Shown: positions 1 through 20,557 of the stretch, one piece after another | Layout: each line of letters opens with the position of its first letter | Position numbering within the stretch: the first letter of the stretch is position 1 | Assembly (NCBI GenBank): GCA_016987375.1 | Contig: PJRA01000506.1 | Coordinates: 892,766-956,765, forward strand | Source of the DNA: Brachionus koreanus | Taxonomy: Eukaryota > Rotifera > Eurotatoria > Ploima > Brachionidae | Direction: 5' to 3' | Length of the DNA stretch: 64,000 nucleotides | Position numbers and translations under genes: made by a program | The notes under the pieces: model-generated | Told to the model about the DNA's origin: nothing | Databases searched by the model: none | Seen by the model: the letters and a program-made list of their open reading frames with translations, nothing else

Positions 1-58
1 TAAGGATGGAAAAATTGACCTGGCTGAATTTACACAAGCATTTGTCATTTATACTTAA
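1..58 (+). CDS. 3' end of an EF-hand calcium-binding protein (partial)
   Basis: Reading from base 2, eighteen codons run to a TAA at 56-58. They encode KDGKIDLAEF followed by TQAFVIYT and the stop. KDGKIDLAE is the second half of a canonical EF-hand loop, with D at position 5, G at 6, I at 8 and E at 12, followed by the usual Phe. The protein therefore ends about eight residues after its last calcium-binding loop. The rest of the gene lies outside the window, so the family (calmodulin-like, recoverin-like or other) cannot be named. Confidence 0.75.
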   Translation, partial: KDGKIDLAEFTQAFVIYT

Positions 59-1802
59 TTATTGGTTTTTAGTTTAGTTGTAAATAATAACCAATTTTTA
101 AAAAAAATTCCGTTGATTTTCAAATTATTTGCCAAATAAAATAGCCTATTAAGTTTAAAATAATCATTCCTTTTTTAACAGCTTTTTTATGGGGATAATT
201 TCTAATTTTTGATAGAAAATTTTCAATAAATTTTAATAATGCAACTATATATTTCTTATTTCTAAATTAAATTTAATTAAAATTTATAATAAACTTGGAA
301 AACTACGAAAAATAATCTGAATTTATAAAAACAAGTTATCGTGAAAACAAAAGGAACTTAAATGTTGAACAATCTTCAAGAGATTTTTTCAAATTTCTTT
401 GTTTTAAATATTTTAAGAAAATACAATTTAATTGATGATTAAAAAATCATTTCCATTAAAATTGAAAAAATTTAAATTTCAAAAACGGTCATGTAAAACA
501 GAAACAGTTATTTATTAAATTAAAAATAATTTTCTTTTATTTTTGCAAGCAATAGCATTAGCAACACGCAAAAGCATTTTTTAGAAATAAAATTTTCAAA
601 TAATATTTTAATAAAAGTTTGTTAAAAATCAGAACTCAAGTTCATTGTTTATCTGCTTAGAAAATAAAAAGAATTCTAAAATAATAAAAAATATTCATTT
701 AATTGAAAATATTTATTTTAAAAGCATCATCAAAACAGAGTATTTGGTGTTTATTTTAATCGTTTCTTTAAAAAAAAAACTTAGTAAAATTCAATTGAAA
801 TTTTTACAAATTCAAATTATATCAATTATTCTTTTTTAAGTATTTTTACTACTTAAACACAATACTAATACACAAATCAAATTAATTGTTTAACTTCTTT
901 TTATATAATAAAAAATTCACAGTACAATTAAATAAGTGCCTTTCGAAAAAAAATGAACAATTAATTCTGAAAATGAAAATTTTATCGACAATTAATTGTC
1001 AAGTCTTGTAGGAATAAATTCAAAATTGAATTGTGTTAAGAGATATAAGAATATAACGAGTAAATTTAATAAAATAAATTGATAAAGATAAATTAATTGA
1101 CTTTAATAATATTCTGCAGCACTAATCCAATTCTCAAAAATTGCTTCCTTTTCTTTATATTAGTTTTTAAAAATTTGAAGCTGATTTTCAATTTGCATTA
1201 AAAATCAAAATAATGAGACAATAGCACCATTCGTGAGAGAATAAAGTGCTGATTAATAAAATAAAAATAATTCATTTGCTTGTAAATAGATGCATTTGAA
1301 TATATAATCTTTTTTATAAACCACACACAAGGCTTGGAGTTGAAATAAAATCCAAGTTAATTGAACTTTTAGATATTTGATCGATTTAAGATAATCTTAA
1401 AGTAACTAAAATTTAAAATAGATGTCGATTCAAATCTAAAAGTGTTCTCAAAGTTTTAAGGTTTTGTTTTTCTTCCCAATCTATTTGTTTTTCTTTTGAA
1501 ATAATCATTTCAAACCTAATTAATTGAAACATATTTTTGTAATAACAAATATAAAAATTCAATTTATACAAATCCATTTATTGCTAATAAATAGTTTGTT
1601 TATATGCTTGGCATTCATACTCAGACTTGAAGCACGATTTCTTAATGATTCATCTACTGCTACCAATAAAATTTTCTTTTAAATTTAATTCTATTTTTCC
1701 AGTTTAGAAATTTGTTAAATCATATAGAATTCATATAAAAACAACAAGGTATTAATTATACTTTAATATGTTTTAAAAGTTAAAAAACAGCAAAAGCCAA
1801 AA
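59..1802. other. AT-rich intergenic region
   Basis: This lies between the EF-hand gene end and the first glutamate receptor start codon. It is AT-rich with homopolymer A/T runs. Short ORFs here, such as 645-839, have biased K/I/L/F composition and no recognisable motif. It presumably holds the 3'UTR of the upstream gene and the promoter and 5'UTR of the receptor. I see no distinct element. Confidence 0.5.
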
Positions 1803-4800
1803 ATGAATTACTTAGTTAAATTATTAATTATATATGTGTTCACATTAAAATTTTTTTCAGCCAAACGAGACCAAAAATTCTACAAAATTGGTAAGTATTT
1901 TTGATAGTTAAAATTATATTTTAAATTAAAAAAAAAAAAAAAACTATTTTTAATTATTTTATTAATTTAATTAAATCAGCGGTTTTTTATGATGAAAACT
2001 ACGAGAGCGCTGAAGATTTAGTATCATACTCAATAGATACTTTAAATCGTCAATTCAGATATTCTGCATTTCAATTTGAGTTTTCTGTCACTAAAACATT
2101 AAAATCAGAGAGCTTTAAAATAACAAAATTTTGTGAGAATTTGTTATTTTTTATTTTTTTATAATTTAATTAATAAAAAAAGTATGTAATGAGCTAGAAG
2201 ATGGTCGTATAGCAATTTTAGCTATCGGTGAGAGTCCAGTATTTTCAATTGTTCATTCAATAGCTTCTTCTTTGAAAATTCCATATATTGCAATAAAATG
2301 GGACAAAATGAACGAAGAATTCAAGAATATTGAAAAGTTCCTAGGTGAACCAGATGAAGAACCCAAAAAAATAGAAAATTTGATTAACATTCACCCGCCG
2401 GCTAATAAAATAATAAAAGCAATTATAGATTTAATCGATTTTTACAAATGGGATCATATAACAGTACTCTTTCAAGAAACAACTGGACTTGCTAGAATCG
2501 AGGACTTGGTTAAACTTAATCTAAGAAAATTTTATAAAAATAGTGTTCATCCGAAATTTCGTGTTCAAGTTAGACAATTGAGCAAAGATATCACCGAATG
2601 GATATATTTGATTAAAGATGTAAAACTCAGTGGCTCTTCTCATATTGTTGTTGATATTCAAAAGCGTTATTTAAATAAATTTTTAGAATTGTCCGAAGAA
2701 GTTGGTCTCCTAACATCCTATTTTCATTTTATGTTTACTACTTTGGATCTAGCCTATTTAGAATATACTCCTTCTGCAAATGTAACAGCACTGCAAATAT
2801 TTGAGCCGAATGATATGAAAATTCGTAGTTTATTTGCTGAATTTAATCTAAAAAATATGGTTTCACATAAGCCAATGTTCAAATACATGCCGGTAAATAT
2901 TTTTATTCTATATTTAGTCATATCCTCTCATAAACTTTATTACTATTGAGCATTGATTTAAAAACTAAGTATAAGAGATTATGGTGATAATTCTATGGCT
3001 TTTTTTAACAGGTCTTAATTATTAACAAAAAATGTGGAAAATATTTATCTTCGTAATCAAGTAATCAATCATTAGACTCTTTGCTATTTAACCGTCAGAT
3101 ATTTGAATATTCTCTAATTCTAGCATCTATGGTTTTCAATTTAAAGGGATCAAAATAACTCACTAATTTTAAATACGGTCCTTTAATAAAATTAATCATA
3201 ATTTTGAAAATCAGTAATAGATTAATTATTTAATTTCTGCTAGATTCGAGTAAAAGCGTTTAGACAGAGGGTTAGTATGGAGCAAATAAAAAAGATAAAA
3301 ATCTAGCTTTATTAATATCCATTGAAAATTTTTTATTTGGTATTTATACTTAAAACCAAAACTTTTTATTGTAAAATTTTTTTGGTTTTTAAATTTTCTT
3401 TTGTCCCTTTTAAGAGTGAAGCTGCCCTAATACATGACGCGATTCACTTGTTAGCTCATACTATAGAATCAAAGTATCTGGTCGATGTAATTGCTGAATA
3501 TCCAAAAGCATCGTGTGAAAAAGAAATACCTTGGTCATACGGAACTGAATTTATGAATCACTTAAAAAAAATTAAATTTACTGGTCTAAGTGGGCATATT
3601 GAATTTGATGAAAATACAGGATTTAGAACAAATGTTACTTTGGCCATAGTAGACAAGACTAGATCTGGTGTTGATTTAGTCGGATTTTGGAGAGATTTTA
3701 ATTTGGATTATCCGATAGAAATAGTAAGAAGTTATGCTAAAGAAAAAGATCAAGTAATGGACAAACTCAACAGAAACTTGATCATTACCACAAAACTAGT
3801 AAGAATTTAAATTATTTGTTATTAAATTTATTATATCTTTTAATTATGAATCTTTAAAATTTAAAATTTCTAATTTTAATAGGGGTTAAATATCAAAAAT
3901 TATTAAACAAAATAACTTTATTAAAAAAAAACACAATATCTGGCAATTTCACTGAAAATTTTTTTATTCTAAAGAGGATTTTGACATCTCTTCAATTCTT
4001 AAATTTCTAATTATTTTTTAAATTTTTTTTAAAAGAAAATTCAAAATTTAATTTTTTATGGTTAATGAAATTTTTCCAATTCTGTTTTTAAATCGCTTCG
4101 AACGCTATTCTAAAAAATTGTATCCAAAATCCAAAAATCTTGAAAAAAAATAGATATCAAAATTACATAAACTGGTGCTTCTAGTCTTAAATAAAAAAAA
4201 GTTCAAATGTATTATATAAGAAATTTTGTTGTTAATACATTGACTTAATGGCTCTAAATTTGGTTTTATGTACAATTCAGCATACAAATATATATCAGCT
4301 TAGGATATTCCTAAAACCCTCCTCAGGCTTCCCGTGTGAGAGTTGTTTCCTTGCTTTAGATACTATTCCGAGTCTAGCAAAGGTACTAATTGCTTTAGCT
4401 TTCTTTTGACAAAGTGCGCAAAGAGTGTCTAGCTCTTAATGTCTTTGGCTGCTTCCACCGCTGTACTCTTGTTTTCTACATTACATACTCAATCAGCATA
4501 AGGAATAGATTTGGAGAGAAAACGCAGCCTTTTTTTGATTCTTGTAAAAATTTTCAAGTTCTCAGATTATCCTTTTTCCAGAATCATGCTACATTTGAAT
4601 ATGACCTAGAAGAGTTTTATCAAGTTAACTATCTTCTGGAAGCTATTTTTTATAATTCTTTTTGAATTTAAAAAAAAATTAGACCTTGAGCTCTTGTTCT
4701 AAATAAAGGCTCACAGGGTTTGTGTGTGTATGATTTCAGGACTTTCTTGAAGTCAATGAAGTTAAGATACACTGATATTTCCTTTAAACTTAATTTTACA

Positions 4801-7656
4801 TTATTCGGTAATATTAAGAATTTTATTAAAGAAATTATTTTCAAAAGCTAAAGAAAATATTTTTAGACATATACTATGGTGGTAAACTTAAAATTATCAA
4901 GAATCTGTTGAATTAAATATTATATGACTGAGCATAGGGAAATGCTGAGATAATTTTTCGGAATAGGATTTTAAATTTTTTATCCAATACAAAAAATACT
5001 GTTTCCGATATTTTTTAACCCTTTTATTGAATATTTTTCAAAAAAATTTTCTTTTTAATATTGGAAAAATCTTAATCATTTTTTAAACTAAGGAAGCGCC
5101 ATATGTTATTAGAAAAGAATCGGAAAATAATGAAACTTTGACAGGTAATGAACAATACATCGGATATTGTATAGATCTATTACAAAAAATAGCTTCAATT
5201 TGTGATTTCAATTATACAATAAAGCTGGTAGAAGATAATGTGCATGGTGCTCTAGTAAATGGAAAATGGAATGGAATGGTCAATGAAATAATTGAAAAAA
5301 AAGCTGATTTGGCTGTTGCTGGATTAACAATTACTTATCAACGTGAACAAGTTATTGATTTCACTAAACCATTCTTGAATTTAGGAATAAGCATTTTGTA
5401 CAAAAGACCAAAAAAAAATACTCCAAATCTATTCTCATTTTTGTCTCCTCTTTCAATTGAAATATGGCTCTACATGTTTGCAGCTTATTTAAGTATTTTG
5501 ACATAAAAATAAATTAATCAATTTATTAATTTTATTCAATTGAAAAATGTTTAGTTGTAAGTCTAATGCTATTTGTTTTGGCTCGTTTTTCACCGTACGA
5601 ATGGCAAAATCCACATCCGTGTAACCAAGACTCAGGTGTAGTAGTAAATCAATTTACTGTTCTAAACAGTCTTTGGTTTACGATAGGATCGTTGATGCAG
5701 CAAGGTAAACTTAAATTCAAATATCCTAATCCTTAACAATCAATTCTTAGGAACTGATATTAACCCACGAGCACCATCTGTACGCTTAATTAGCTGTGTG
5801 TGGGCTTTTTTTACTCTAATATTGATATCATCGTACACAGCTAATTTAGCTGCATTTCTTACAGTTCAGCGTATGCAAAATCCAATAGAAAATGCTGAGG
5901 ATTTGAGTAAACAAACTGAAATTAAATATGGCTCGGTTCGCAGTGGGTCGACTGAAAATTTTTTCAAAGTAATCAGGACTTTTCTAATCCTGATCTTTCT
6001 TAGATATCTTGTTCTCATTTGCTTTGATTTTATTTTAATCTTGCATGCTTTAAGGAAATGACATTCATACAAAATCGTGTAGTGCACGAATTTTAACGAC
6101 TGCTTGGTGGTTTTTTGCTCTTATTATGGTATCCTCTTATACTGCTAATTTGGCTGCTTTTTTAACTAGTAGGCGTTTGCTTTCTCCTATTGATAACACT
6201 GATGATTTGGCAAAACAAACTGAAATTCACTATGGTTGTTTGAACGGAGGCTCAACACAACAATTTTTTAGAGTATTTTTCGCCTTTAAACCCCCCATAG
6301 TACTTAATTTCCTTTTAAAAACCTATTTAAATGCATGAAATTTTTTCTATTAGTGTTTTAATAATTTTTAAATTTCTTGCTAATTCAATCATTTCAGGAG
6401 TCCAAAATTCAAACATATGAAAGAATGTGGAATTTCATGAAAAGTAATCCTGATGTTTTTGTTTCGTCACCAGAAGAAGGAATTGCAAGAGTAAAGAAAG
6501 GAGGCTATGCTTATTTAGTAGAATCAACTACCAACGATTATTTGAGACAACGGGATTGTGAGTTGATGCAAGTAGGCGGACTGATTGATACAAAAGGATA
6601 TGGAATCGGCACTCCACCTGGATCACCTTGGAGAGACCAAATTTCCAATGCTATTCTTCAGCTCCAGGAAAAAGGAGATTTACAAGAGTTGTATATAAAG
6701 TGGTGGGAAAAAGAAGGAAAGGATCCGAATCAAAAATGCGATCACTCTGAAGACAAAAAAAAAGATTCGGCTAGTGAATTGAGTTTAGCAAATGTAGGAG
6801 GTGTATTTGTCGTACTATCACTTGGTTTATGTCTTAGTTTTATAGTGGCTATTTTAGAATTTCTTTGGAAAGCTCGCCAAACTTCAAACGATCAAGTATT
6901 TTTTTCAAATATTTTTTAATTTATTTTCCTAAATTTTTGAATTATATGACAGTGGAATTTTTCTAAACGATGTAAAAATGGTTTTAGGCAAATTATGGAG
7001 AATTTTTTTAAGGCTGAATTTGATAATCCTTTTTTTAAATTTAAAAATATTGAATCAAATTTATCTATCGAAAAATTTGATGGTGAAGAATCAGTTCAAT
7101 TTTTGGAAAAAAAAACAAAAAAAGGCAAAGAATTGATTGAAACATCTTCAAAAAATATGTCAGATAACTATCTATCAAGTCCGCTTTATATTGATAGTGA
7201 TTCTAATCCAGTTACTAGATATGCCCATCATTTGTATACTCATCATAATTCTTAAGTAATTAAAAGATTTGAATTGAACTAACTGATTACTTTCCACTAA
7301 CATTTACTAATAAAAATCTAATTAGAAAATAATTTATATTTAAAATTTTTTGTTAAATACTAATATAATTTTTTATTATTAAACAGAGAAGTTTAAAAGA
7401 AAGGATCCTTGATGAATTTAAATTTGCAATGTGTCATCACAAAACAAAAAAAAGAACTGATATAGTACAAAATTTTGATCTAAATAATAATCTGAAAATA
7501 ATAGAACCAAAACGATATGTAAATTATTTTGAAGACAACTTAGACTACTCGTATTTAGCACCAATTGATCAATACAAACAACATCTTATAAGAGTTCAAC
7601 AGATGAGGCAAGCAAATTTGGATAATAATCTAGGATGTTCATGTCTATTTGAATAA
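1803..7656 (+). CDS. kainate-type ionotropic glutamate receptor, copy 1 (with mutually exclusive pore exons)
   Basis: Exons: 1803-1890, 1980-2132, 2183-2892, 3415-3798, 5093-5492, 5555-5704, then 5751-5968 or 6055-6272, 6398-6895, 7387-7656; 956 residues by either route. The start is the ATG before a hydrophobic signal peptide ([13 protein letters not shown]). Residues to about 445 are the amino-terminal domain. S1 contains [18 protein letters not shown], with the agonist-carboxylate Arg. M1 leads into RFSPYEW, and M2 has [14 protein letters not shown] with Gln at the Q/R site. M3 has [12 protein letters not shown]2 has YLVESTT with the amino-contact Glu, and M4 is [21 protein letters not shown] and [16 protein letters not shown] are closer to GluK than to GluA or GluN subunits. 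It should form a glutamate-gated cation channel at the plasma membrane. An AATAAA overlaps the stop codon. A homologous tandem copy lies 4.3 kb downstream. Confidence 0.92.
4290..4790 (-). mobile_element. decayed LINE reverse-transcriptase fragment in a receptor intron
   Basis: This lies inside the 3799-5092 intron of receptor copy 1, on the opposite strand, and is visibly less AT-rich than its surroundings. On the minus strand, about 4762-4707 reads NFIDFKKVL, matching reverse-transcriptase motif A (F-x-DF-KKAFDS type). Further along, about 4535-4485 reads [17 protein letters not shown], matching motif B (RQGCVLSPxLFNLY-EYVM type). Motif order fits one element, but frameshifts and stops separate the motifs. 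It is a dead relic. The plus-strand ORF 4414-4665 is its antisense shadow. Confidence 0.75.
5751..5968 (+). other. mutually exclusive exon 7a of receptor copy 1 (M2 end, M3, start of S2)
   Basis: This 218-nt exon is preceded by a 46-nt intron ending in TTCTTAG and followed by a GTAATC donor. It enters in phase 1 and leaves in phase 0. It encodes [15 protein letters not shown], then [22 protein letters not shown] (M3), then [11 protein letters not shown] and GSTENFFK (start of S2). It differs from exon 7b through most of the exon but keeps the [11 protein letters not shown] gate motif. The WW pair that usually opens M3 is W-A here. Mutual exclusion with 7b is inferred from phase and homology. 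Confidence 0.85.
6055..6272 (+). other. mutually exclusive exon 7b of receptor copy 1 (M2 end, M3, start of S2)
   Basis: This is also exactly 218 nt, 86 nt downstream of exon 7a, with acceptor TTTAAG and donor GTATTT and the same entry and exit phases. It encodes [24 protein letters not shown], then [12 protein letters not shown] and [11 protein letters not shown], then GSTQQFFR. It resembles the fused single exon of receptor copy 2 ([27 protein letters not shown]) more than it resembles its neighbour 7a. 7b is therefore probably the ancestral-type version and 7a the diverged one. Confidence 0.85.
7013..7255 (+). other. candidate alternative terminal exon of receptor copy 1
   Basis: An open frame starts after TTTTTTTAAG at 7012 in phase 0, which matches the phase-0 donor at 6896. 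It would add [12 protein letters not shown] and so on to YTHHNS and a stop, a cytoplasmic tail of about 80 polar residues. The competing terminal exon 7387-7656 is the one with homology to copy 2 (CHHK, then LDLNN-type residues), so it is the better-supported tail. Use of 7013-7255 is an inference from frame and splice site only. Confidence 0.45.
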
Positions 7657-10600
7657 AGTTTTAAATTATTAATTTTTTATATTTATAAATTTTAAAATCA
7701 ATCTTTATTAAAATATGATTTAATCTAGTTTCCATTTTTATTTAATAAATTTATATAAATTATAATCAATTTTCTCAATTTCTGACTGTTCGAAATTATT
7801 TCTTTTTTTTTAAATATCTTTTGGTGTTAGTTTTCATGATAAAATTTGATTTTCATAATAGAAATTACAAGTAAATCGCTAGAAGAAAATAATTTTCAAA
7901 ATTTTCTTTGCAATTTTCGATGATAAACAAATATTTCTTAATTGGAATGAAAAAAAAACAATGCAGATAAAAAGTTTCCTAATTGATTAAGAAAATCGAT
8001 TGATAAAACTATTATCGAAGAATCTTGGAGCAATATTTTTTAAACTGTTCCAGCTTCATTTGAGTCTTAATTAAAAATACAGGATATTAAATTTCGATTA
8101 GTTCCTTAGATTTAGAACTCGTAATATTTAATGACTTTGGAAAAAAAGTTTATCTATCACTAACATGAAACAAATTTAATTTAAATATCCGATTTTTCTC
8201 TCTAATTCACATATTTCTTTACTTTATCTAATTAATAGATTAATTGAAAACAGAATCATCATACAGTTATATTTTCGTTTCAAAATCTGAATTTAAGTTT
8301 AAAATGGAACGGATTTCAGATTTATGAATTCAAAAACAAAAATAAGGCTAAATATTTTCTAATGTCAAATTAGAGATAGTTAGAGTTAATATTTATTTTG
8401 TGCTATTCAAATAAAAAATTTAAAAAAAATTAATTTTAGTTTTTAATATAAATTTTTGTTTATAGATGCACATTTGTTTTATATTTCTAGCGTTGTTTCA
8501 AACTTAAGTCAATAACATTGCCATCATTTTAAACAATTTTATGTCAAAAATTCTATTAATTAGTTTTAAATCTAAAAAATTGTTATGTATAGATGAATAT
8601 TTGATCAATTTTTAATTTTTCCTATTTTAGTAATAAAAATATTGATTAAATTATAAATAGTAATTTTTTTCTTTTTTACTAAAAGCTGGACTATTAAATT
8701 AAATTAAAATAAAACTTATAATTTTATTTAGGCGATGTAAAGAAAATTAAATGTCAATTTTGAAATTAAAAAAAAATTCAGTTTTTATTTCCTTATTTTC
8801 TTAAAAATAACTCAAATTATTTATCATACAAAATTAAATTAAGTTAAAATAGTGTTTCATCAAGTCAGATGATCCAGTATTGTTACATTCAAAGCATAAC
8901 TCGATCAAAACACACGTAATTTTAGATTAAATTGTGTGTGCGAGTTTAACTATTCTTGTTAATTGCTTGCTAAAGTATATTCTCAATAAAATATTTTATA
9001 GCTTATCTGAAATTTTCAAAAGCGTTTATGGATAAATGATTATTGAAAATTCTTTTAACGGAGAATAATTCGTGCTATTGTATTTTTAGTTTTATAAAAT
9101 TCTAAATTAATCTATCTAATAGTTTTCGAAAAATAAATGATTAAACTAAAAATCTTAAATTAAGACACCAATTAATTTTTCTTTATAATTTTTTCTTGTT
9201 CAGATAAATTTATTTGTCTTGAAAATTGAAAATCTGGAAAGGAGCTTTATTTTAAAATTAATTGTATCTTGAGAACCATTCATTATTATTAGTCGTTGCA
9301 TTTTTAAAATAATGATATTTCTATCAAATATTTCTTTTAATCGATTAAACTGGAATTATCCAGAAAGAAAACAACACAAAATTGTACTTTTAAAAATTAT
9401 GGATTTCATATTTGTTAAAAATTTAAAATATTATCTAATAAATTAAGAAAATATTTAATTTATAATAAAAAGCTTATTCAAATATTGATTTTCTTCATTT
9501 AGAATAAAATAAAAAGCATCTTTATAGAGCATTAATCAATTTTTATTAATCAATCATGAATTAAAACATTTTTTTTTATGATATGATTTCAAAATCTATA
9601 ACATAATTCACAAAATGGTTTACAAGTCAAAAGCCTTGAAATGCAAGAAAATGTTTAAAATATTTCATTTTTTATTTGCTTTTAAATGAAAATTTTTTAA
9701 AATATAGCCAAAATATTCAGTAGAGTTTTCTTTTCTTATACTCTCTTTGTGGAACATTGGATCATTACTTTTGATTTCTACTCAGGTCGATCTTTTGCCT
9801 TTACTCTTGCTTCACTCCTTGTCATTTCTATTATAGTGAGCTCTTTCATGAATATTCATTGCTGGTCTTCCTACTTTTTGCCTGGCTTACGGTGTTTATT
9901 GCAGGGCTCTTTTCGTTATTCCATTTTCTTCCATCCTAAATATATGTCCAAGCCACCTTAATCTTTTGTTCTTTTTGCACAGGCTCATTGATTCAGAATT
10001 TGTTATTTTGAATAATTCGTCATTTTTATTGTATCAGATCAGTGTATTTTTTGAATTCTTAAGTTTCAAATGTGGAATGCTTTAATACTTTTTCTGCCAG
10101 CTTCAGGCATCCCCCAGCATTCAGTACCATACATTAGCGTTGCTTTCACTATACTATTGAAAAGCTTAAAATTTGTTTTATTGTTGAAGGTGGTAGATTT
10201 CCAAGCTGGTTTAAGTCTTGCAAAGTCACTTTTTGCTTTCGACAGTATTCTCTATGTCTTTATGTGATCCCATGATTCAGAAGAGTTGTTTCCAAAGAAT
10301 TAAAAAAAATTGTAATATCTTATAACTGTTAATTGTTATTTAAAGATTGTGTGCATTATTATTTGATGTTTCGGTATTTAATCAAAGAAAAGTAGAAATT
10401 TAATTAAGAATGAGAGCTAGTTAAGTTGATTAAAGGGTTCAAGAAATTGAACGAAAAAGCAAAATTTTATAGAATTTTTAACGTAGAAAAATAATCAATT
10501 TCAATTTAACAATAAAACTTGTCATAAAAGGCTTCTGAAAAATTTTCACGGTAAACATGAACATGAAATTTTCCCACTGAAAACAAGAATAGACAGAATC

Positions 10601-11953
10601 TATAAGAGACTAAAAATCGACAAAATCGATAATGGGTTTTTAAAGTCAAAATATGACTACGAACTAATTGCCAAGGAAATTAGTGATTTCACTGCAAATA
10701 AAATCACACCACATTTCAAACTCCTTTAGACACCTTATTTTAAACAACTACAAAATTTGATTTTTCCTAAAAGAAGAGTTGAAAAGAGGATTATCTAAAA
10801 AAATCTGAGTTTAGATAATTTCTTCTTTTTTTTGCGACTAGAGAATAATATGTCCTTAAAAATATGTTTAAATTGGAACATATTTATATAAATAAAATAA
10901 TTCTGAAAGAAGTTAAATAGATTTTGAAGGCAACCCGTTCATTCAAACTTCTAAATGTTGTACTAATACTAAACAGGAGACAAAATAAGAGCTATTGATC
11001 TTCGGCAAAATGAAAATAATCTCTAAATTTCCAGTTTTTTACTTATACATTTAGGTAAACTCTCAAAAATACTTTTATCATCTTTCTTATTCTTTTTTTT
11101 ATAAAATTCTAAAATTATTAATTTGAGAATTTAAACAAAAGCGAATGCTATTAAAATTAAATTAATTAGCCCAAATATTTTGAGAAATAACTTGCTTCCA
11201 TCAATGGATAATGACTCTTGTTATTATGATGGAACAATCAAGGAATGATTTCAGAGTAAAATAGCACAATTTATTTTGGCCTACGAACAGCTAAGATCTA
11301 TTTTAATTAAATTTTTTTTATTTTCTTCTCTATATGACATTTAATTAAAAAAAATAAATAAAAATATAAAAACTAATAATAAAGGGTATTAAGTCAATAT
11401 ATAAAATTAAAAAACTAAATTGCCTTGTTTAAATTAATATTCATTTTATGAAGTGGTAGATCTATTTAAACAATTTGCAGTGCACTTGTCAAATTTTAAA
11501 AGGTATTACATTGCGCTTGCAATCAAATGAAATTGATTCAAAAATCGATTAATTAAGCGTAAGTTGCTTCTAAATTTTTAGTTTGCACAATTAATTAGAT
11601 TTCCGCTATTTTTGCTGAAGCCTTCAAGTCAAAACTCAAAATTGAAAAATTAATCGAAAACGATAGAAATTTTTTAAATTGAATCTCTAAAATAAATAGA
11701 TAAATTAGCTTTTTTATGTATCTTTAAGCTATTTGTAATTAGAAAAAAGAGTCATGTAATAAGGAAATTGAATAAAAATTTCATTTTTCATTTAATACTT
11801 TTTTTTACTTAACACACACGGGAAATATCACTTTAATGGCATATTAATTCTTTTCTATTTTTTCATTTTTTTGATATTTTAAATTTTTCGATAATTACTC
11901 ACTTTTTAAAAACAAAATTCACTGTATTTTTTTTAGATTTTTACAAAGATCTA
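7657..11953. other. intergenic region between the two receptor genes
   Basis: This holds the 3' end of receptor copy 1 and the upstream region of copy 2. Apart from the decayed LINE fragment at about 9740-10290 it is AT-rich with no convincing ORF, RNA gene or repeat that I can identify. Confidence 0.5.
9740..10290 (-). mobile_element. decayed LINE C-terminal reverse-transcriptase fragment
   Basis: On the minus strand, from about 10235 downwards, the reading is DFARLKPAWKSTTFNNKTNF, then LFNSIVKATLMYGTECWGM. After stops and a frame change comes RLRWLGHIFRMEENGITKRALQ. This is the classic end of a non-LTR retrotransposon ORF (LKPIWKSxxxxxxTKLRLFNSxV, then LLYGCETW, then LxWLGHVxRMxxxRxPKxxL). 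It has several stops and no intact frame. It has the same orientation as the fragment in the receptor intron but covers a different part of the protein. The plus-strand ORFs here are antisense shadows. Confidence 0.8.
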
Positions 11954-14900
11954 ATGAACATAATTTCAACGAATTCTTTGATTGTGCTATCTCTGCTACT
12001 TAATTTGGTCTTCAGTCGAAGAGAGCAAAAAATTTTCAAAATTAGTAAGTATATTTAATTAGTTTTGTTTTAAAAAAAACCTTAATTCTGCTATATGTTT
12101 AGACTTTTAATTATAATACTTGATAAATTATTGTAATATGTTAGACGTTAGACATTACATTAAATCATGCTTTGAGGGCAAGTTGAAGTTAATGAAGATC
12201 AATTATTTCTTCATATTTTATAAAAAAATTTTAGGATTAATGGATTGCGAATTGAAGTGATATTTGAATTGAACATAAATTTCAACTTGTCGATTCGAGT
12301 TGGACCAGTCACATTTAGAAATTTTCAAATTTATAAGTATTTGTAAATAATTTAACTGAGTTTGATTTTTTAGATTTTGGAGAAACCAAATTCGATTAAT
12401 TAAATAATTATTTTTTGGAAAAAATTAAATTTAGTATAAGAAAATATATTTTTTTTATTTTGATTTATAAATTTTATGATTTAAATTTAATAGTTTTTGT
12501 AATGGGAAACAATGCAAATATCATTTTGAAATTTTGAATTGAATTTAATAATTTTATTTAAATAATCTTTTCTTATGAAGGTTTTTTCTATGATGATTCG
12601 TCTGAAAATATTGAAGATTTGATATCGTACTCAGTTGATGCAGTAAATCGCATTTATCGTCAGTCTAGATTTCAATTAGACTTCAATTCTCACAAAGTAG
12701 ATAAAACTAAGGCCTTTCAATTGATAAGAACATGTAAAAAGTTGAATAAAATTTTTACAATAGTTAATATTTTTTTTTAAGTCTGTGACGAAATTGAGGA
12801 TGGTCGAATAGCAATAATTGCAATTGGAGAAAGTTCGGTATTTAAAATAATCGAATCTATAGCTAGTTCACTGAGTGTTCCATACATTGAAGTTAAATGG
12901 AGCATATTGAGTGAAGAATACTCCATTTTATCGGAAATTATTCAAAATAATGAGAAATTTGTGACAAAATCTAACAAAATAAACATACATCCACCAGCTT
13001 TTAAGTTAATAAAAGCCTATATAGATATTATAGATTTCTATAAATGGGAATATGTTACCATATTATTCCAAGAGTCTACTGGATTAAATAGACTTGACGA
13101 TTTGCTTAAAATTCCAAAAAATTTAAGTGCTTTGAATGAATTTTCAAATCAGAATATTTTGAATAATAAATTCCGTGTAATTGCTAAGCAATTGAGCACT
13201 GATCAATCGCTTTGGTTTAATTTGATAAATGACATAAAGCTAAGTGGATCATCTCATGTGATAGTTGATATTTCAACCAAATATCTTAATAAATTTCTTG
13301 AAATTGTAATTAAATTTTATTTAACTAAAAAGATAATAAATAAATATAAAATCTAAGGCCGATGATGCTGGTTTGATGACAACTTATTTTCATTTTTTGT
13401 TTACAAGCTTAGATCTTGCTGCACTTGAATACACACCATCAGCTAACGTGACAGGATTTCAAATTTTTGAGCCAAATGACTACAATGTTAGAAATATTTT
13501 TGCGGAATTCAACTTGAAAAATTTAGTTTCTCAAAAACCTCTGTTTAAATACATGCCTGTAAATTTTAGATTTTTTGAATTTAAATTTTAGCTAATATAA
13601 GAGTCGATTATTTTATTTAGAGCTCTGCCATTTTCATACACGATGCTATTTGGCTTGTTGCACAAACAATAGATGAGAATAATTTAGTAGACTTTCTGCC
13701 CGAATCACCAGTGATGTCTTGTGACAGTGAGAAGCAATGGTCATATGGAGAAAAAATGATTGAAAATTTAAAAAGCATGAAAATAAATGGACTAAGTGGA
13801 AATATCGAGTTTGACAAATTAACAGGATACAGAAAAAATTTGACTCTTTCAATTGTGGATAGAACTAAAAATGGAGTTGAATTAATTGGTTATTGGAAAG
13901 ATAATAGCCCTAAGCCTATCAGTGTTGTAAGAAGCTATGCTAAAGAAAAAGATCATATTCTAAATAAATTAAATAGGAACTTGATAGTCACCACAAAAAT
14001 AGTTTGACATTTTTTTTGTATATCGTATTTTCTTGTAAATAATTTCTCATATAAGAACAACCTTTTTAATGCAAAAAAAATCTAATCTTTTTTGAATACA
14101 AAGGTCTAATTAAAATGTTTTATTAAAAAAAGATTTTTTTGTCAGTTTGAGTCCTAAATGTTTTGATAAAGAGGAAATTTAATTTATAATTATAATAATT
14201 TGTCGTATAACAATTCTTAACAGAATAATAGGCAAGGTGCTCATTTATTTTCATTTCAGTAGCTTTTTGAGCGATTGGTCCAATTTACATGGACCATAAG
14301 AATATGAAATTTAGTGGGAAATTATTTACAAGAAAATAAGGTAATTGATTGATATATTAAAAAAAAATATTAAAGGAAGCACCATATGTAATGCTAAAAT
14401 CTTCTTTTAATAATGAGACTCTTGAAGGAAATGATAAATATAAAGGTTATTGTGTTGATTTGTTAGTAAAAATCTCAAAAATTTGTGGATTTAATTACAC
14501 AATTAAGCCTGTTGCTGATGGTGTACATGGTACTTTAGTTAATGGAAAATGGAATGGAATAATAAATGAACTCATTGATAAAGTAATATTTATTTTTTTT
14601 AATTTTATCATAAATAGTTTAAATTTATATAAAAATCAATAAGTTTACGCTTTTTATGTTTATTGAAAAAATATTAAATAATTGAAGAGGAAATTTCATT
14701 TTGGTTTTTGCTTTGTTTTTGTTTAAAATGAAGATCATAAATTGAAGATTATCACAGAAATTATAAAAATAATTAATTAACTGTGTAAATTAAAAAATTA
14801 ATTTTATTTAAATATTTTGAGCCAAACAACATAAAATTCAAAATTTTAGAAAATGCAAAATTTTAGAAAAATTTTATCAAAATTATCAATTTATTCGCCT

Positions 14901-16570
14901 ATTTTTCAGTCTTAAAAATTAATGAAATAAAATGAAATTTTCAAACATATAATTTAATTAAATAATAAAATATTTAATTAAAATTTTATTTAGAAAGCGG
15001 ATATTGCTGTAGCAGGTTTGACTATTACATATCAGCGTGAACAAGCTATTGACTTTACAAAACCATTTCTAAATCTTGGAATCAGTATTTTATATAAGCG
15101 ACAACAAAAAATCAATCCCAACATATTTTCTTTTCTATCTCCGTTATCAATCGACATATGGCTTTATATAATAGCAGCATATTTGTGTAAAAAAAAAGCA
15201 TTTGAAAAAAAATTTTTTTTGATTGATTTTTACTTTAAGTTGTCAGTATATTGCTGTTTGTTTTATCAAGATTCTCTCCATACGAATGGAAAAATCCCTA
15301 TCCATGCAAAAAAGAATCTGATGTTGTTGAAAATCAATTTACATTGACGAATAGTTTGTGGTTTACAATCGGTTCATTAATGAAACAAGGAAGTGATATA
15401 AATCCGAAATCTTTTTCAGCTCGAATCCTCACTGGAGTTTGGTGGTTTTTTGCTTTAATAATGATTTCTTCATATACTGCCAATCTAGCGGCTTTTTTAA
15501 CCACTAAAAGACTAAGCTCACCCATTGAAGACGTTGAGGGTCTTTCAAAACAGAGCGAGATCAAATACGGATGCTTAATAGATGGTTCAACCCAGCAGTT
15601 TTTTCGAGAGTCGAAAATTCATACTTATGAACGAATGTGGAATTTTATGAACAGTCAGCCAAATGTTTTTGTCTCATCTACTGAAGAGGGTATTGAGAGA
15701 GTAAAAAAGGGTGGTTTTGCTTATCTTCTGGAATCAACTACCAACGATTATTTGAGACAACGTGATTGTGAGTTGATGCAAGTAGGCGGACTGATTGATA
15801 CAAAAGGATATGGAATCGGCACTCCACCTGGATCACCTTGGAGAGACCAAATTTCCAATGCTATTCTTCAGCTCCAGGAAAAAGGAGATTTACAAGAGCT
15901 ATATACAAAATGGTGGGAAAAGGAGAGCAAGAATCCAAACGATAAATGTGAGAAAATTGATGACAAAAAAAAAGATTCAGCGAATGAATTAAGTATGGAA
16001 AATGTCGGAGGAGTTTTTGTTGTTTTATTTGTTGGTTTGATCCTATCTTTTATTGTCGCAATTTTGGAATTTTACTTCAAAACTAGGAACCATTCAAAGA
16101 ATCATAGTTTACCAGAAAAAATTATTAGCCGTCTTAAAGTTGCATGTTGTCACCATAAACATATAAGGCGATCTTCTTCTTTAAAAAATTTAGATTTAAA
16201 TAATGAAATTAGATTAGTGGCGCCTAGTGAAAATGGTAATTATTCAAGACAAATTATGAACATGAGAAAAAAAAGACCGGAAAATTTGTTTAATAAAAAT
16301 ACTTTATTAGTTGGAAAACTTTCCAACTCAATGGATTTTGATCAGCCAAATGTTTTTGAAAAAAATTTTCCAAAAAAGTCTAAAAGTTTATTTTTTCAAG
16401 ATTTTAATAGTATTTTGGCAAGTAATAAAAAGTATCATTATTCGTTCGTAAATAAACCTGCGTACAGACTCGAAAACCATAATTTGAAGAGAAAATTGAG
16501 TCCAGTTCACTTGAACGAAATAAATACTGAGGTTTTAAAATTTGGAGATAATAATTTTTCAGGTTTTTAG
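11954..16570 (+). CDS. kainate-type ionotropic glutamate receptor, copy 2 (Lys at the Q/R site)
   Basis: Exons: 11954-12044, 12581-12733, 12782-13305, 13358-13558, 13621-14001, 14376-14582, 14994-15186, 15240-16570; 1026 residues. The architecture is that of copy 1: signal peptide, amino-terminal domain, S1 ([18 protein letters not shown]), M1 ([11 protein letters not shown]), M2 ([14 protein letters not shown]), M3 ([11 protein letters not shown]), S2 ([16 protein letters not shown]), M4 and a cytoplasmic tail. Extra introns split the amino-terminal domain at 13306-13357 and S1 at 14583-14993. Conversely, everything from M1 to the stop is one 1331-nt exon, so the exon pair of copy 1 has no counterpart here. 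The tail is about 160 residues, longer than in copy 1. The residue after M in M2 is Lys instead of Gln. It probably heteromerises with copy 1. An AATAAA lies about 20 bp after the stop. Confidence 0.92.
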
Positions 16571-17345
16571 TTTCATTTTAAATTTTTTAAATAAATTTTT
16601 ATTAAAAAAAAAACAATTTTTTTTTATTTAATTTAAAAAATCTAAAAGTTAAATAATTTAAACTTATAAAACACCTGAATGCTCATTGATCTAATTTTAT
16701 CATTTTTTGATCCTTTTTTACTTGGAAATTTTAGATTCAAAATTAGAATTAATTTTTCATGAAATTTGAATTATTAAGTTATCACAGAAAATTAAATTAA
16801 TTTGCATATGAAGTTTCAGAAAATGAAATAATAGAAGATTTTCACTATGATTTAAATGTAAAAATGGTGAGTTTAAGTTAAGCCTCATGGTTTTGTGAAT
16901 AAGTTGGACATAGATGTAAATAGTGTTTAGGTGACTTAAGTTAAATTCAAATTTCAAAATTGAATATAAATATGTGAATATGTAAATAAACTTTTTGTTT
17001 TTTATTTTTATTATGAAAGCAAACCTAAGATTGCGCTTGTGGTTGCTACATCACACTCTTGTTGCATCAGGATTTTTGTCTTTTTACTCATTCTAATAAG
17101 ACAAAGTAAATACAGTTAAATCATTAGAATTTTTTTAATTATTCCACAAGCGTTTAAAGTCTGGAAAAAGTTTATTTTATTTTAAAAGAAAAATCTTAAA
17201 TTAAACTTTCATTGTTGTACACATTAATATTTTACTCAATATTCTTTTCATGTTTTAAGGAACCAAATTTGATAAATATTAAATAAGTTCATAAAATCTG
17301 AAATTTATTAAAAGAAAAATAACTAAAATATTAGTTTATTTTAAT
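16571..17345. other. convergent intergenic region
   Basis: This lies between the stop of receptor copy 2 (+) and the stop of the first CHP-like gene (-), so it should contain both 3'UTRs. It is AT-rich and I see nothing else in it. Confidence 0.5.
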
Positions 17346-17912
17346 CTAAGACAAAAATTTCATACTCATTTTTTCATCAATATCAATCTTTTTTAAACAA
17401 TCACAAAATTTTTCGAATGAAATTCCTTCATTCACTGGCAAGCCCAGCTCAATTATTGTTCTATCTGCAATAGCGTTTAATTGATCATCTGGCAAATTAT
17501 CTCCAACAATCATTTGTAATATTGATAATAATTCAATTTGGCTAATGGAATTATCTTTATCGCGATCGTACATGTCAAAAATAAACCTAAGCTTATTTTC
17601 TAGCGAATTTGGACCATTCGAATTATGTGATTTACGACGAAAAATTGCCAAAACATTTACAAATTGCCTAAAGTTTAACTGGCCATTTTCACCATAATCA
17701 CTAACTAATACATCGATAATTCGATCTCGAACAGGATTATACAATTCTGGAATTGACGATAAATCTTCTCTTCGTAAATATCCTAAATTATCTTTATCCA
17801 AACTATTGAATCTGCTAAACAAACGTTTTATCTGACTGTGCGAAAATCCGGTTTCTTTACAAATATTTTCTATTTCAGTTGAATCTATGGTTATACTATG
17901 AGAAGAACCCAT
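17346..17912 (-). CDS. CHP1: CHP1-like calcineurin B homologous protein, copy with degenerate EF4
   Basis: A 188-residue, uninterrupted frame. I start at the internal ATG giving MGSSHS rather than the upstream in-frame ATG at 17951, because a Gly-2 myristoylation start is conserved in CHP/calcineurin B proteins. Sequence support includes KETGFSHSQIKRLFSRF near residue 20, the C-terminal DEKMSMKFL (DVEQKMSIRFLH in the vertebrate family) and an EF3 loop DRDKDNSISQIE. CHP proteins are regulatory subunits of Na+/H+ exchangers. EF4 reads GLPVNEGISFEK, so it has lost all three acidic ligands and the final Glu, unlike the paralogue at 20000. No intron is seen. Confidence 0.88.
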   Translation of the reverse strand: MGSSHSITIDSTEIENICKETGFSHSQIKRLFSRFNSLDKDNLGYLRREDLSSIPELYNPVRDRIIDVLVSDYGENGQLNFRQFVNVLAIFRRKSHNSNGPNSLENKLRFIFDMYDRDKDNSISQIELLSILQMIVGDNLPDDQLNAIADRTIIELGLPVNEGISFEKFCDCLKKIDIDEKMSMKFLS

Positions 17913-19999
17913 CTTTCTAAATAAAGGTCTTTTTTTAAATTTTTTTCGCATACATCTTATAATGCTTCTGAAAATTATTTTTTTTTAAATATATTTAAAA
18001 ATTTTTCTTTAAATTCAAAATTTATTATTAAACTACGGCTTTTAGTGTTTCATGCGGATCTAAACGCGTGATTATGCTATTAGTGCATGCGCTATTATTT
18101 AACACCCTTAAAGCATGTGTGAGATGTAATTTGGTGCATGATCCAAAGGCGTTTTTTAACTTGTATTGTAGCATAATCGAACGAGGTAATACTTGAATTA
18201 AAAAAAAGTAAATTTTTTTCAAAAGAAAATTTGAAAAAAGAAAATAAGCAGGTATTTTCTTAGATTCTTACCTAAAATATCTGATCAAAAAATATCACAA
18301 CTTTAAAGAAAATTAGTATTATTCTTTTTTTTTTCTTTTGGAACTTAAATATACCTAAATTTAATCTTTTTTTTCTTTTTTCTTTTTTTTTTGCCAAAAA
18401 TGTCTTAATGTACATGCTGATAATATATAATTAAAATCATGAATTTGAACAAAATATATATATATTTGTGGAATAATCCGGAATAGAAAGAAAAAAGAAA
18501 AGAAAATTTTTAATTAGTTAAAATATAAATACCAAATTAAGAAATTTAAATGAAATTATTCGATTCATTTGGTTGATAATAACTATACAATACAATTAAG
18601 AAGAAATTTTCTTATTAAGAAATATTAATTTATTGGGAGTAAAAAAATCAAAAAGAAAAATTTGAATTTGAATTAAAATTTGAAATTAACTTTAATTTTT
18701 TTCCATCTTTTAATCTATCGTAAATATTTGTATTAAAATGCCGGACAAACTGCTTTGTTGATGCTTTTTTTTGAAGCATCGATTTTTGTGAGGTGTTAAC
18801 AGACAAATATTTACGGTGTTTTTAAATTTAGTTCTAATACCATAAATTTACTAATTAGAAAATTTTTTATTACAATCAAATATGCTGTTTATAATAAAAA
18901 ACAAAATTAAAAATACATTTTCATAAAAGACTACACTGTAGAATTATGCCTAGTAACTTTTTTAATTCAAAATAATTTTTTTAAATTTTGAAAATATTAG
19001 ATTATTTATACAATGTTGAACTTAAACTAAAATTGAATCGACAAATCTAGAATTTTTATTTAAAATGGAGTTAAATGAAATTAAAATCTTAGTTATTTAA
19101 TAGACAACAAAATCACGAAAGACAAGAAACTGGTTAAGAGAAAACTTATATAAAATCGAGAATGCTTGAATTTTAATTGCCTGTAATAAATGATATCTTA
19201 GTAAAATAGTTTTAAAAACCGCGTATGATAACCATTTTTATGATAAATAAAGTTTGCTTTAAGCATAGTTTGCTAAATGCATTGACCTAAAACGAGCTTT
19301 TTTCTTTGCTTACTTAACTTAGATTCGACAAATTATGATTTCTAGCTAAATTCAATATTCTAGTCTTGAGGTTTGTTAAACTCAAATAAAGCATATAGCT
19401 AAATAGCTAGAAATTAAGCATAATTTGTTTACCAAGGCAAACACTTAGAAAATTTAATGTTTTACTTTACCAAAAATTAAGCATGTTCGTTTTCCTACTG
19501 AGAGAAACAAAAGCCTAAGAAAAAAAAACAAATTTGTTATTTGCACTCATGTCTTAATTATGCTTTTTTAATAATTTTTTTCAATCATTAAAAATGAGCT
19601 TGATAAAAAAAGTTTGAAAAAAATTATTAAAAGGGATTAGCTAGAACTGGTTCGAAAGAATAATTTTATTTTAACCTTTAATTTTGTTTAAGCTATAACA
19701 AAAAGTTAGAATTAATCGGTAATAATAATATTTTAATGACTAATTTCAAAATTTCTGCATTAAAATTAAAAAATTTTTATAAAACTGTTTTTATTTTTTT
19801 TATTAGATTTAATAATAAGTAATTTATTCATAGCCTAATGTTTCTTAAATGATTTTATTTATTGATTAAAAAAATTTAATAAAATCAAATTGAATCAAAA
19901 AATAATTTATTTAAAAACAAATTTAATTAATGACTAGCTGTAACCATAAAATGATTTTTCTATTAGCACTTGGAAAAATATCGCTTTTAATAAGATTAT
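17913..19999. other. intergenic region between the two CHP-like genes
   Basis: About 2.1 kb of AT-rich DNA. It contains a less AT-rich hairpin-bearing island at about 18030-18200, listed separately, and a short (TA)n run near 18454-18466. No convincing gene is visible in the remainder. Confidence 0.5.
18033..18190. repeat. GC-richer island with inverted and direct repeats upstream of the first CHP-like gene
   Basis: This stands out by composition. GATTATGCTA at 18070-18079 is perfectly inverted as TAGCATAATC at 18169-18178. A second similarity is direct: GGATCTAAACGCG at 18056-18068 resembles TGATCCAAAGGCG near 18139-18151. Several GCATG cores occur (TGCATGCGC, GCATGTG, TGCATGATC). It could be promoter or 5'UTR of the CHP-like gene, a small foldback element or a structured RNA. 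The sequence does not decide. Confidence 0.4.
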
Positions 20000-20557
20000 T
20001 TATGTCAAAAATTTCATGCTCATTTTTTCGTCAACATCAATTTTTTTCAATGTTTCGCAGAATTCCTCAAATGTAATAACTAGATCACCATTTTCATCAA
20101 GTTCAGTGATTGTTCTTTCAGCAATGGCGTTCATTTGTTCTTCTGGAATATTTGAACCCACAAGCATTTTCAAAATACCCAACAGTTCACCCTTATTTAT
20201 TTTATTGTCTTTGTCTCGGTCATAAATACCAAACAAAAATTTGAGCTTATTGTCTTTACTAGAATCATTCTTTTCTCGTCTAAAAGTAGAAAAAACTTTG
20301 GCAAATTGTCTAAAATTTAACTTTCCATCTTTTCCGTGATCGTCTATTAAAACTTCAATTATTCGATCACATAATGGGTTTACATGCAATTCTGGGATTC
20401 GTAGAAGATCCTGTCTACTCAAATATCCAGCATTATCTTTGTCCAATGTCGTAAAACGATTGTACAAACGTTTTATTTGATTTGGAGAAAATCCCGTTTC
20501 GTTTGCGATGGTATTTATTTCTTCTTTTTGAAGCAGAATAGAAGAATTTGATCCCAT
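20000..20557 (-). CDS. CHP1: CHP1-like calcineurin B homologous protein, canonical copy
   Basis: 185 residues, intronless, starting MGSNSS with a myristoylatable Gly-2. It contains NETGFSPNQIKRLYNRF, LSRQDLLRIPEL and NPLCDRIIEV as in CHP1. The EF3 loop is DRDKDNKINKGE and the EF4 loop DENGDLVITFEE; both keep acidic residues at positions 1, 3 or 5 and the final Glu, so two calcium sites are likely, as in vertebrate CHP1. It ends DEKMSMKFLT. Known role of the family: an essential myristoylated cofactor of plasma-membrane Na+/H+ exchangers. It lies in tandem, same strand, 2.1 kb from the degenerate copy. Confidence 0.9.
   Translation of the reverse strand: MGSNSSILLQKEEINTIANETGFSPNQIKRLYNRFTTLDKDNAGYLSRQDLLRIPELHVNPLCDRIIEVLIDDHGKDGKLNFRQFAKVFSTFRREKNDSSKDNKLKFLFGIYDRDKDNKINKGELLGILKMLVGSNIPEEQMNAIAERTITELDENGDLVITFEEFCETLKKIDVDEKMSMKFLT

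What the first reader, a model, noticed from the sequence alone, without database searches (positions are those of the whole stretch)
5751..6272. Mutually exclusive exons swap the M3 gate of a kainate-type receptor
Two adjacent exons of exactly 218 nt encode alternative versions of the post-Q/R pore loop, the complete M3 helix and the start of S2. Both have good splice sites and identical entry and exit phases. Using both makes the second read out of frame and stop after about 13 codons. Skipping both also shifts the frame and stops within a few codons. Only one-or-the-other is productive. M3 is the channel gate, so splicing would change gating, permeation or the gate-to-ligand-domain linker. 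The known vertebrate flip/flop exchange is elsewhere, in late S2. I do not know of a described M3-swapping exon pair in glutamate receptors.
Basis: partly seen in the sequence, partly recalled or inferred. Interest (0 to 1): 0.88.

Follow-up and report, generated by a model that had tools for sequence, protein, structure and literature searches.

The report
Swappable pore exons in rotifer receptor
A rotifer-like glutamate-receptor gene carries two old, alternative versions of the exon that encodes the inner pore helix and the strut linking it to the glutamate clamp, apparently used one at a time, so that one gene could make receptors that open and close differently.

Summary
Confirmed in the DNA: two adjacent 218-nt exons (A 5751-5968, B 6055-6272) in a complete kainate-type receptor gene (1803-7656, +), same phases; A+B or neither stops early. 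Either exon gives a full-length receptor, closest in the PDB to GluK2. Neither artefact nor recent copy: A and B share 39/72 residues and synonymous codons match no better than chance. A is 71/72 identical in Brachionus calyciflorus; a B orthologue (55/60) lies on an unnamed contig. The tandem paralogue (11954-16570) has one M3, of type B. Correction: the gate motif is identical in both; the swap changes the post-filter loop, lower M3, M3-S2 linker (Q or R at GluK2 E662) and early S2. The logic is that of AMPA flip/flop at another site and in another receptor class; ten full-text searches listed no M3-exon pair in a glutamate receptor. No RNA data could be consulted: use of B and mutual exclusion are inferred, and the splice sites are canonical but not strong. 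New variant of a known kind.

The parts
1803..7656 (+). Gene 1: kainate-type ionotropic glutamate receptor. Constant exons 1803-1890, 1980-2132, 2183-2892, 3415-3798, 5093-5492, 5555-5704, 6398-6895, plus the alternative exons below
   Evidence: gene model (exon ends set by eye on GT/AG, frame and homology to gene 2); Pfam ANF_receptor, Lig_chan-Glu_bd and Lig_chan in both isoforms; best PDB match GluK2, 532 bits
5555..5704 (+). Constant exon upstream: end of M1, M2 and the Q/R site (MQQG); ends 1 nt into the Gly codon
5751..5968 (+). Alternative exon A (218 nt, phase 1 to 0): post-filter loop, M3, M3-S2 linker, start of S2; equals GluK2 residues 624-695
   Evidence: 71/72 identical in B. calyciflorus P0001; 79% in P0197
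6055..6272 (+). Alternative exon B (218 nt, same phases), same segment
   Evidence: orthologue P0178 55/60; 52/72 to the gene 2 M3
5969..6054 (+). 86-nt intron between A and B; longer than the 46-nt intron upstream of A, so not obviously too short to be spliced
6398..6895 (+). Constant exon downstream: rest of S2 and M4
6953..7255 (+). Alternative last exon c1 (ends ...HHNS, stop)
   Evidence: open in phase after 6895
7387..7656 (+). Alternative last exon c2, homologous to the C-terminus of gene 2 and to that of the annotated B. calyciflorus protein P0001
   Evidence: seen by eye
11954..16570 (+). Gene 2: tandem paralogue. Last exon 15240-16570 runs from M2 to the C-terminus without the introns that gene 1 has there; Q/R site is K (MKQG)
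   Evidence: orthologue P0045 in B. calyciflorus
15392..15607 (+). M3 segment of gene 2, type B
   Evidence: 72% to exon B, 61% to exon A; groups with B
6518..6697 (+). Recent gene-conversion tract with gene 2 (15728-15907) in S2
   Evidence: 174/180 nt identical; 68/90 in the 90 nt just upstream, 128/180 in the 180 nt just downstream

Best explanation
Gene 1 encodes one kainate-type subunit in two main forms by splicing in either exon A or exon B between constant exons 5555-5704 and 6398-6895. The length (218 nt, 2 mod 3) makes A+B and neither frame-shifted, so such transcripts should be lost to nonsense-mediated decay, as argued for flip/flop. Shown: two intact, homologous, phase-matched exons; full-length frames with either; relatives of each elsewhere. 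Inferred: that both are used in RNA, that the choice is regulated by cell or stage, and that the effect is on gating. The gate motif is kept, while the post-filter loop, the lower half of M3, the M3-S2 linker and early lobe 2 are exchanged, so the forms should differ in coupling between the clamshell and the gate (activation, desensitisation, recovery) and perhaps in assembly, rather than in permeation. Most likely origin (inferred, about even odds): the A/B pair is older than the split of gene 1 and gene 2, gene 1 kept both, and gene 2 kept only the B type.
For: Frames and phases. Complete receptor with either exon, nearest to GluK2 (532 bits; best AMPA receptor 460). Constraint: B against gene 2 M3 pN 0.19, pS 0.87; A against B pN 0.30, pS 0.62, with silent sites saturated (A-B 17 identical codons of 38, 17.1 expected). 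Exon A is the most conserved of the segments compared with B. calyciflorus (99%; ATD 69%, S1-M2 89%). A-type ORF P0197 reads what looks like intron before a Gly at the same place and a GT-compatible V after it. B orthologue P0178 runs into the same intron start (VFFA) as the window. Trees: A types 96/98 with paralogue C17 (98/93 without it), B types 99/98 including gene 2 and bdelloids (99/95), whereas the S1-M2 part of gene 1 groups with gene 2 (99/98) to the exclusion of bdelloids, and so does the post-M3 part (SH-aLRT 96). Flip/flop shows the same logic: 115-nt exclusive exons whose double inclusion or double skipping shifts the frame and should trigger NMD (PMC8257547, passages). E662, which in GluK2/K5 marks where chains of two closed states diverge (PMC7997659, passages), is Q in A and R in B, and E in 262 of 279 rows held, many of them closely related arthropod models.
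Against: No RNA evidence for either exon. The annotated B. calyciflorus protein has A only (P0001), although the 90% clustering of that database would hide a B isoform. P0178 and P0197 come from unnamed contigs, and A and B were not seen side by side in a second species. Splice sites of both exons are not strong and B's acceptor is the lowest of the six scored. The intron between A and B is long enough to be spliced and no intron-intron pairing above shuffles was found, so no device enforcing exclusion was identified. Forcing A types and B into one clade is not rejected (p-AU 0.128; 0.296), and the bootstrap had not fully settled, so the age of the split is not settled.
Confidence: 0.78

Rival explanations
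1. Only exon A is used; exon B is a relic or very rarely used exon.
For: P0001 of B. calyciflorus is annotated with A only. B's acceptor scores lowest. B differs from its orthologue P0178 at 5 of 60 positions where A differs from P0001 at 1 of 72 (the two comparisons may be of different species). Residues of B at several near-fixed columns are rare: A at exon position 21, V at 25, R at 39, L at 41; but exon A also has such a residue, A at 18.
Against: B is intact in frame, phase, length and splice sites, its relative P0178 is equally open, and B against gene 2 M3 shows strong constraint. A relic with saturated silent sites should have gained stops.
Confidence: 0.13
2. Origin by ectopic transfer: gene 1 had only A, and exon B was copied in from the tandem gene 2 (or its ancestor with introns) by unequal exchange.
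For: B is closest to gene 2-type M3 among M3s other than its orthologue. Recent gene conversion between the two genes is seen at 6518-6697. Gene 2 and the bdelloid proteins P0125, P0128 and P0131 share K at the Q/R site and type-B M3, as if gene 2 were the old B lineage and the rest of genes 1 and 2 had been homogenised.
Against: Gene 2 is intronless around M3, so the transfer must predate its intron loss; B and gene 2 are about as diverged (72%) as the neighbouring S1-M2 segments of genes 1 and 2 (76%), so a common ancestor with both exons needs fewer steps. This rival concerns origin only and is compatible with exclusive splicing.
Confidence: 0.3
3. Origin by plain tandem duplication of one exon inside gene 1 after the gene 1/gene 2 split, with B converging on gene 2.
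For: The tests holding A types and B together are not significant (p-AU 0.128 and 0.296). pS of A-B is lower than that of A-gene 2 and B-gene 2, although at the level expected from codon usage.
Against: Best trees place B inside a 99/98 (99/95) clade without A in two taxon sets; B and gene 2 share SARILT, FFALIM, YGCL and STQQFFR.
Confidence: 0.2
4. Assembly or annotation artefact: a duplicated or collapsed stretch, or two fused genes.
For: None found.
Against: A and B differ at 80 of 218 nt with silent sites at chance; no direct repeat pairing the flanks of A and B was listed (which misses copies under about 65% alike); relatives of A and of B occur in other sequence sources; the gene model has one ATD-S1 half and one S2-M4 exon.
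Confidence: 0.01

Closest known systems
AMPA receptor flip/flop exons (GRIA1-4)
   Same: Tandem, equal-length, mutually exclusive exons in an ionotropic glutamate receptor; using both or neither shifts the frame (PMC8257547, 12 of 26 passages shown)
   Different: 115 nt, end of S2 and S2-M4 linker, AMPA class, 8-10 of 38 residues differ; here 218 nt, M3 to early S2, kainate class, 33 of 72 residues differ
Insect nAChR alpha6 alternative exons 3 and 8
   Same: Old exclusive exons in a neurotransmitter-gated channel, with unequal conservation and usage of the copies (PMC1919356, 12 of 20 passages shown)
   Different: Cys-loop receptor, unrelated fold (recalled); that exon 8 covers a channel-lining helix is recalled, not seen in the passages
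Kainate receptor splice variants of vertebrates (GluK1 exon 9 insert, C-terminal variants)
   Same: Alternative splicing of kainate subunits; gene 1 here also has two possible last exons
   Different: Those change the ATD or the C-terminus; the passages that I saw of the human survey name no M3 alternative (PMC8257547; PMC11540303 seen only as listing and start of abstract)
Gene 2 of the same window (11954-16570) and bdelloid relatives P0125, P0128, P0131
   Same: Same receptor family with a type-B M3
   Different: A single M3, K at the Q/R site, fixed by gene rather than chosen by splicing

Membership tests
Kainate-type ionotropic glutamate receptor | ATD, two-lobed glutamate-binding domain and ligand-gated channel domain | tested here: met
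   Pfam PF01094, PF10613, PF00060 above cut-off in both isoforms
Kainate-type ionotropic glutamate receptor | Sequence closer to GluK than to GluA | tested here: met
   GluK2 532 bits, best AMPA receptor 460 (isoform A); S1-M2 tree separates it from the three AMPA rows 100/100
Kainate-type ionotropic glutamate receptor | Gate motif SYTANLAAF | tested here: met
   Identical in A and B
Kainate-type ionotropic glutamate receptor | Response to glutamate or kainate | not testable with these tools
   Needs expression; the S-T pair at positions equal to GluK2 689/690 is present in both exons (its ligand role is recalled)
Mutually exclusive exon pair | Adjacent homologous exons, same phases, similar length | tested here: met
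   218 and 218 nt, phase 1 to 0, 39/72 aa
Mutually exclusive exon pair | Joint inclusion or joint skipping unproductive | tested here: met
   Stops after 13 and 7 codons
Mutually exclusive exon pair | Each exon seen alone in transcripts | not testable with these tools
   No RNA data available; only A is seen in an annotated relative (P0001)
Mutually exclusive exon pair | First exon conserved in another species | tested here: met
   71/72 in B. calyciflorus P0001
Mutually exclusive exon pair | Second exon conserved in another species, next to the first | tested here: inconclusive
   P0178 is 55/60 identical but from an unnamed contig whose DNA I could not read
AMPA flip/flop pair | Alternative segment at the end of S2 in a GluA subunit | tested here: not met
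   Segment is M3 to early S2 in a GluK-like subunit

The most novel reading that the evidence does not exclude
The A/B choice of M3 is older than the split of monogonont and bdelloid rotifers, and the tandem gene 2, whose 3' half lacks the introns that gene 1 has there, was remodelled by a reverse-transcribed B..c2 mRNA. Gene 2 would then be a fossil of the B splice form, and rotifers would have traded an ancient splice choice in the pore for a second gene, with an exon that retunes the coupling of clamshell and gate.
Probability: 0.25. Interest if true: 0.8.

Novelty: new variant of a known kind. Interest (0 to 1): 0.62.

Why it matters
The exclusive exons known to me in ionotropic glutamate receptors (flip/flop) touch only the end of S2. 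Here the element between pore and ligand clamp is exchanged while the gate motif is left untouched, a ready-made pair of chimeras for asking what the M3-S2 linker and lower M3 do. It would also be a case in which the same two channel variants exist both as splice forms of one gene and, in part, as a separate neighbouring gene.

Tried and rejected
Viral contig scans with exon B, exon A and the last exon of gene 2 found no relative. Intron-intron base pairing as a device for exclusion: no pair stronger than shuffles (355, 459 and 496 of 500 shuffles reached the observed energies). Rfam at gathering scores: no match in 1-20000. Steric exclusion by a short intron: rejected as the sole device because the A-B intron (86 nt) is longer than the 46-nt intron before A and seven others of the two gene models. 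Silent-site dating of A against B: saturated, no date. Structure prediction was not run: I took the tool's description to cover only sequence readable straight from the window or fetched loci, and a spliced protein is not; a model of a fragment would not have decided anything.

Own-genome search with A found 11 places at E <= 0.001 and with B 9 at E <= 0.01, A and B themselves included. The others are gene 2, two neighbouring AMPA-type genes on C5, a kainate-type gene on C47, two near-identical copies on C17 and weaker matches on C16, C30 and C51. In the stretches that I read of the C5, C17 and C47 genes I saw one M3 each. C16 I looked at only as open frames; C30 was fetched but not read.

Rows of the trees were picked by hand: the M3 tree used 7 window-genome rows and 28 of the 297 proteins held, leaving out for example P0130, P0240 and P0285; one search dropped a further 3 rows with long branches. 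The AMPA outgroup was not a clade by itself, and C17 sits on a long branch (0.88), so its place beside A is unsure.

Literature: ten counted full-text searches on exclusive exons and glutamate, kainate, rotifer, Brachionus, mollusc, insect and M3-S2 terms; the listings (at most 25 rows each) showed no M3-exon pair in a glutamate receptor. Passages of five papers were seen (searches cover PMC5740500, PMC1919356, PMC6307864, PMC8257547, PMC11186766, PMC7997659, that is six; a seventh, PMC9013439, held none of the terms asked for). The library lacks most subscription papers.

Full report
What is there. The window (25% GC) comes from an 83-Mb, 92-contig genome. Gene 1 (1803-7656, +) is a complete ionotropic glutamate receptor: ATD, S1, M1-M2, M3, S2, M4 and C-terminus, with Pfam ANF_receptor, Lig_chan-Glu_bd and Lig_chan in both isoforms. 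Of 317 solved sequences at E <= 1e-50 (60 shown), GluK2 is best at 532 bits; the best AMPA receptor shown has 460. Exon ends of the model were set by eye and are not backed by RNA.

The exon pair. Exon A (5751-5968) and exon B (6055-6272) are each 218 nt and sit between 5704 and 6398. The upstream exon ends one base into the Gly codon after the MQQ glutamines; both alternatives complete that codon and end in phase 0. A or B gives an open receptor; A+B stops after 13 codons of B; neither stops after 7 codons. Introns are 46, 86 and 125 nt.

Not a recent duplication or artefact. A and B share 138/218 nt and 39/72 residues. Among 38 codons with the same amino acid (Met and Trp left out), 17 are identical where codon usage predicts 17.1: silent sites are saturated. 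Non-silent change is restrained (A-B pN 0.30, pS 0.62; B-gene 2 M3 pN 0.19, pS 0.87).

Relatives. Three protein searches were run. The first (7486 hits among 7972 scored, 120 listed) gave B. calyciflorus P0001, orthologue of gene 1, and P0045, orthologue of gene 2. P0001 carries exon A with 71/72 identity; the ATD is 69% and S1-M2 89% identical, and exon A is the most conserved segment compared. The second, with exon B scored inside the full protein (62 hits among 91), found no annotated protein with exon B: the best were P0045 (77%) and P0001 (74%). The third, exon B alone (941 hits among 957, 120 listed), put first a 70-residue open frame P0178 from an unnamed 2.3-kb contig, 55 of 60 identical, which runs on into the same intron start (VFFA) as in the window. 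It is presumably from a rotifer, but the source is not named. P0197, an open frame on a 13.2-kb contig, is an A-type M3 (79%) that reads what looks like intron before the same Gly. I could not read the DNA of these contigs, so I have not shown A and B side by side in a second species. The protein set is clustered at 90%, and isoforms A and B would fall in one cluster, so absence of an annotated B isoform means little.

Trees. In the M3 tree (35 hand-picked rows, 72 columns) A, P0001, P0197 and the long-branched paralogue C17 form one group (96/98); B, P0178, gene 2, P0045, five other unnamed frames and three bdelloid proteins form another (99/98; 99/95 in a set of 32 rows). The S1-M2 part (25 rows, 183 columns) instead joins genes 1 and 2 of both species (99/98) without the bdelloids, as does the post-M3 part with the conversion tract removed (24 rows, SH-aLRT 96). 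B is about as far from gene 2 M3 (72%) as the neighbouring S1-M2 segments are from each other (76%), whereas A is farther (61%). The plainest reading is that A and B are older than the split of gene 1 and gene 2. It is not proven: holding A types and B together is not rejected (p-AU 0.128; 0.296), nor is holding A types, B and gene 2 together (0.213). Recent gene conversion between the genes (6518-6697, 174/180 identical) shows that exchange happens, so copying of B from gene 2 remains possible.

Where the swap acts. By the alignment and the residue names in two GluK2 papers (PMC11186766: L655, S670; PMC7997659: E662; passages), exon position n equals GluK2 residue n+623. The gate motif and the hinge L655 are identical in A and B, within the identical run [12 protein letters not shown]. 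Identity is 4/15 in the post-filter loop, 17/22 in M3 (all five differences in its first half), 6/15 in the M3-S2 linker and 12/20 in early S2. Notable positions among 279 rows held, many of them closely related arthropod models: 18 (A in exon A; W in 256 rows), 21 (A in exon B; T in 251), 39 = E662 (Q in A, R in B; E in 262). [quoted passage not shown] PMC11186766 describes tension in the M3-S2 linkers as what kinks M3 and opens the channel. The S-T pair at 689/690 is kept. So the inferred effect is on coupling and desensitisation; ion selectivity should change little because the Q/R site is in the constant exon.

How exclusion may work. Frame plus NMD would suffice, as argued for flip/flop in PMC8257547 (passages: 115-nt exons; junctions linking flop and flip up to 12% in human data, expected to be removed by NMD). 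No RNA pairing between introns beat shuffles, and the A-B intron is not too short. Splice sites of the pair are canonical but not strong, which suits regulated exons but also leaves room for B being rare.

Gene 2. Its last exon (15240-16570) lacks the three introns that gene 1 has from M2 to the C-terminus and matches, in order, constant exon, type-B M3, S2-M4 exon and c2. Loss of several consecutive 3' introns is what recombination with a cDNA would give (general knowledge). If so, the cDNA was of a B form. Against a single event: P0179, a type-B frame from another source, lacks the pre-M3 intron but seems to keep the post-M3 one, while P0180 and P0181 seem to keep both (introns inferred from reading frames only).

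Verdict. Observation confirmed; interpretation right in outline, with the correction that the gate itself is not swapped. RNA proof is missing. New variant of a known kind, interest 0.62.

Noticed in passing
window 6518-6697 and 15728-15907: Recent gene conversion between the tandem receptor genes: 174/180 nt identical, against 68/90 just upstream and 128/180 just downstream.
   Followed up: partly
window 6953-7255 and 7387-7656: Two possible alternative last exons of gene 1, both in phase after 6895; the second resembles the C-terminus of gene 2 and of B. calyciflorus P0001.
   Followed up: partly
window 15240-16570: Gene 2 lacks three consecutive 3' introns that gene 1 has and carries K at the Q/R site, as do the bdelloid relatives P0125, P0128 and P0131.
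   Followed up: partly
arthropod kainate-type proteins, for example P0005-P0011 and P0034-P0037: 86 of the 177 held proteins of 500 aa or more carry two M1-M2 signatures in a row, in the 40 listed mostly 85-86 residues apart, in insects and crustaceans (the search favoured such proteins). Possibly alternative M1-M2 exons that annotation joined.
   Followed up: partly
protein P0019 (Mercenaria mercenaria): A bivalve kainate-type model holds two different M3 segments (signatures at 637 and 762): possible independent M3 exon duplication, or a mis-joined model.
   Followed up: no
G000 C17 335085 (+) and 482474 (-); L016, L017: Two near-identical, oppositely oriented copies of a divergent kainate-like gene; they seem to share both introns flanking M3 with gene 1 and to have one more inside the M3 exon (by eye).
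   Followed up: partly
window 17346-20572 (-): Two neighbouring EF-hand genes that look like calcineurin B paralogues (naming from recall).
   Followed up: no
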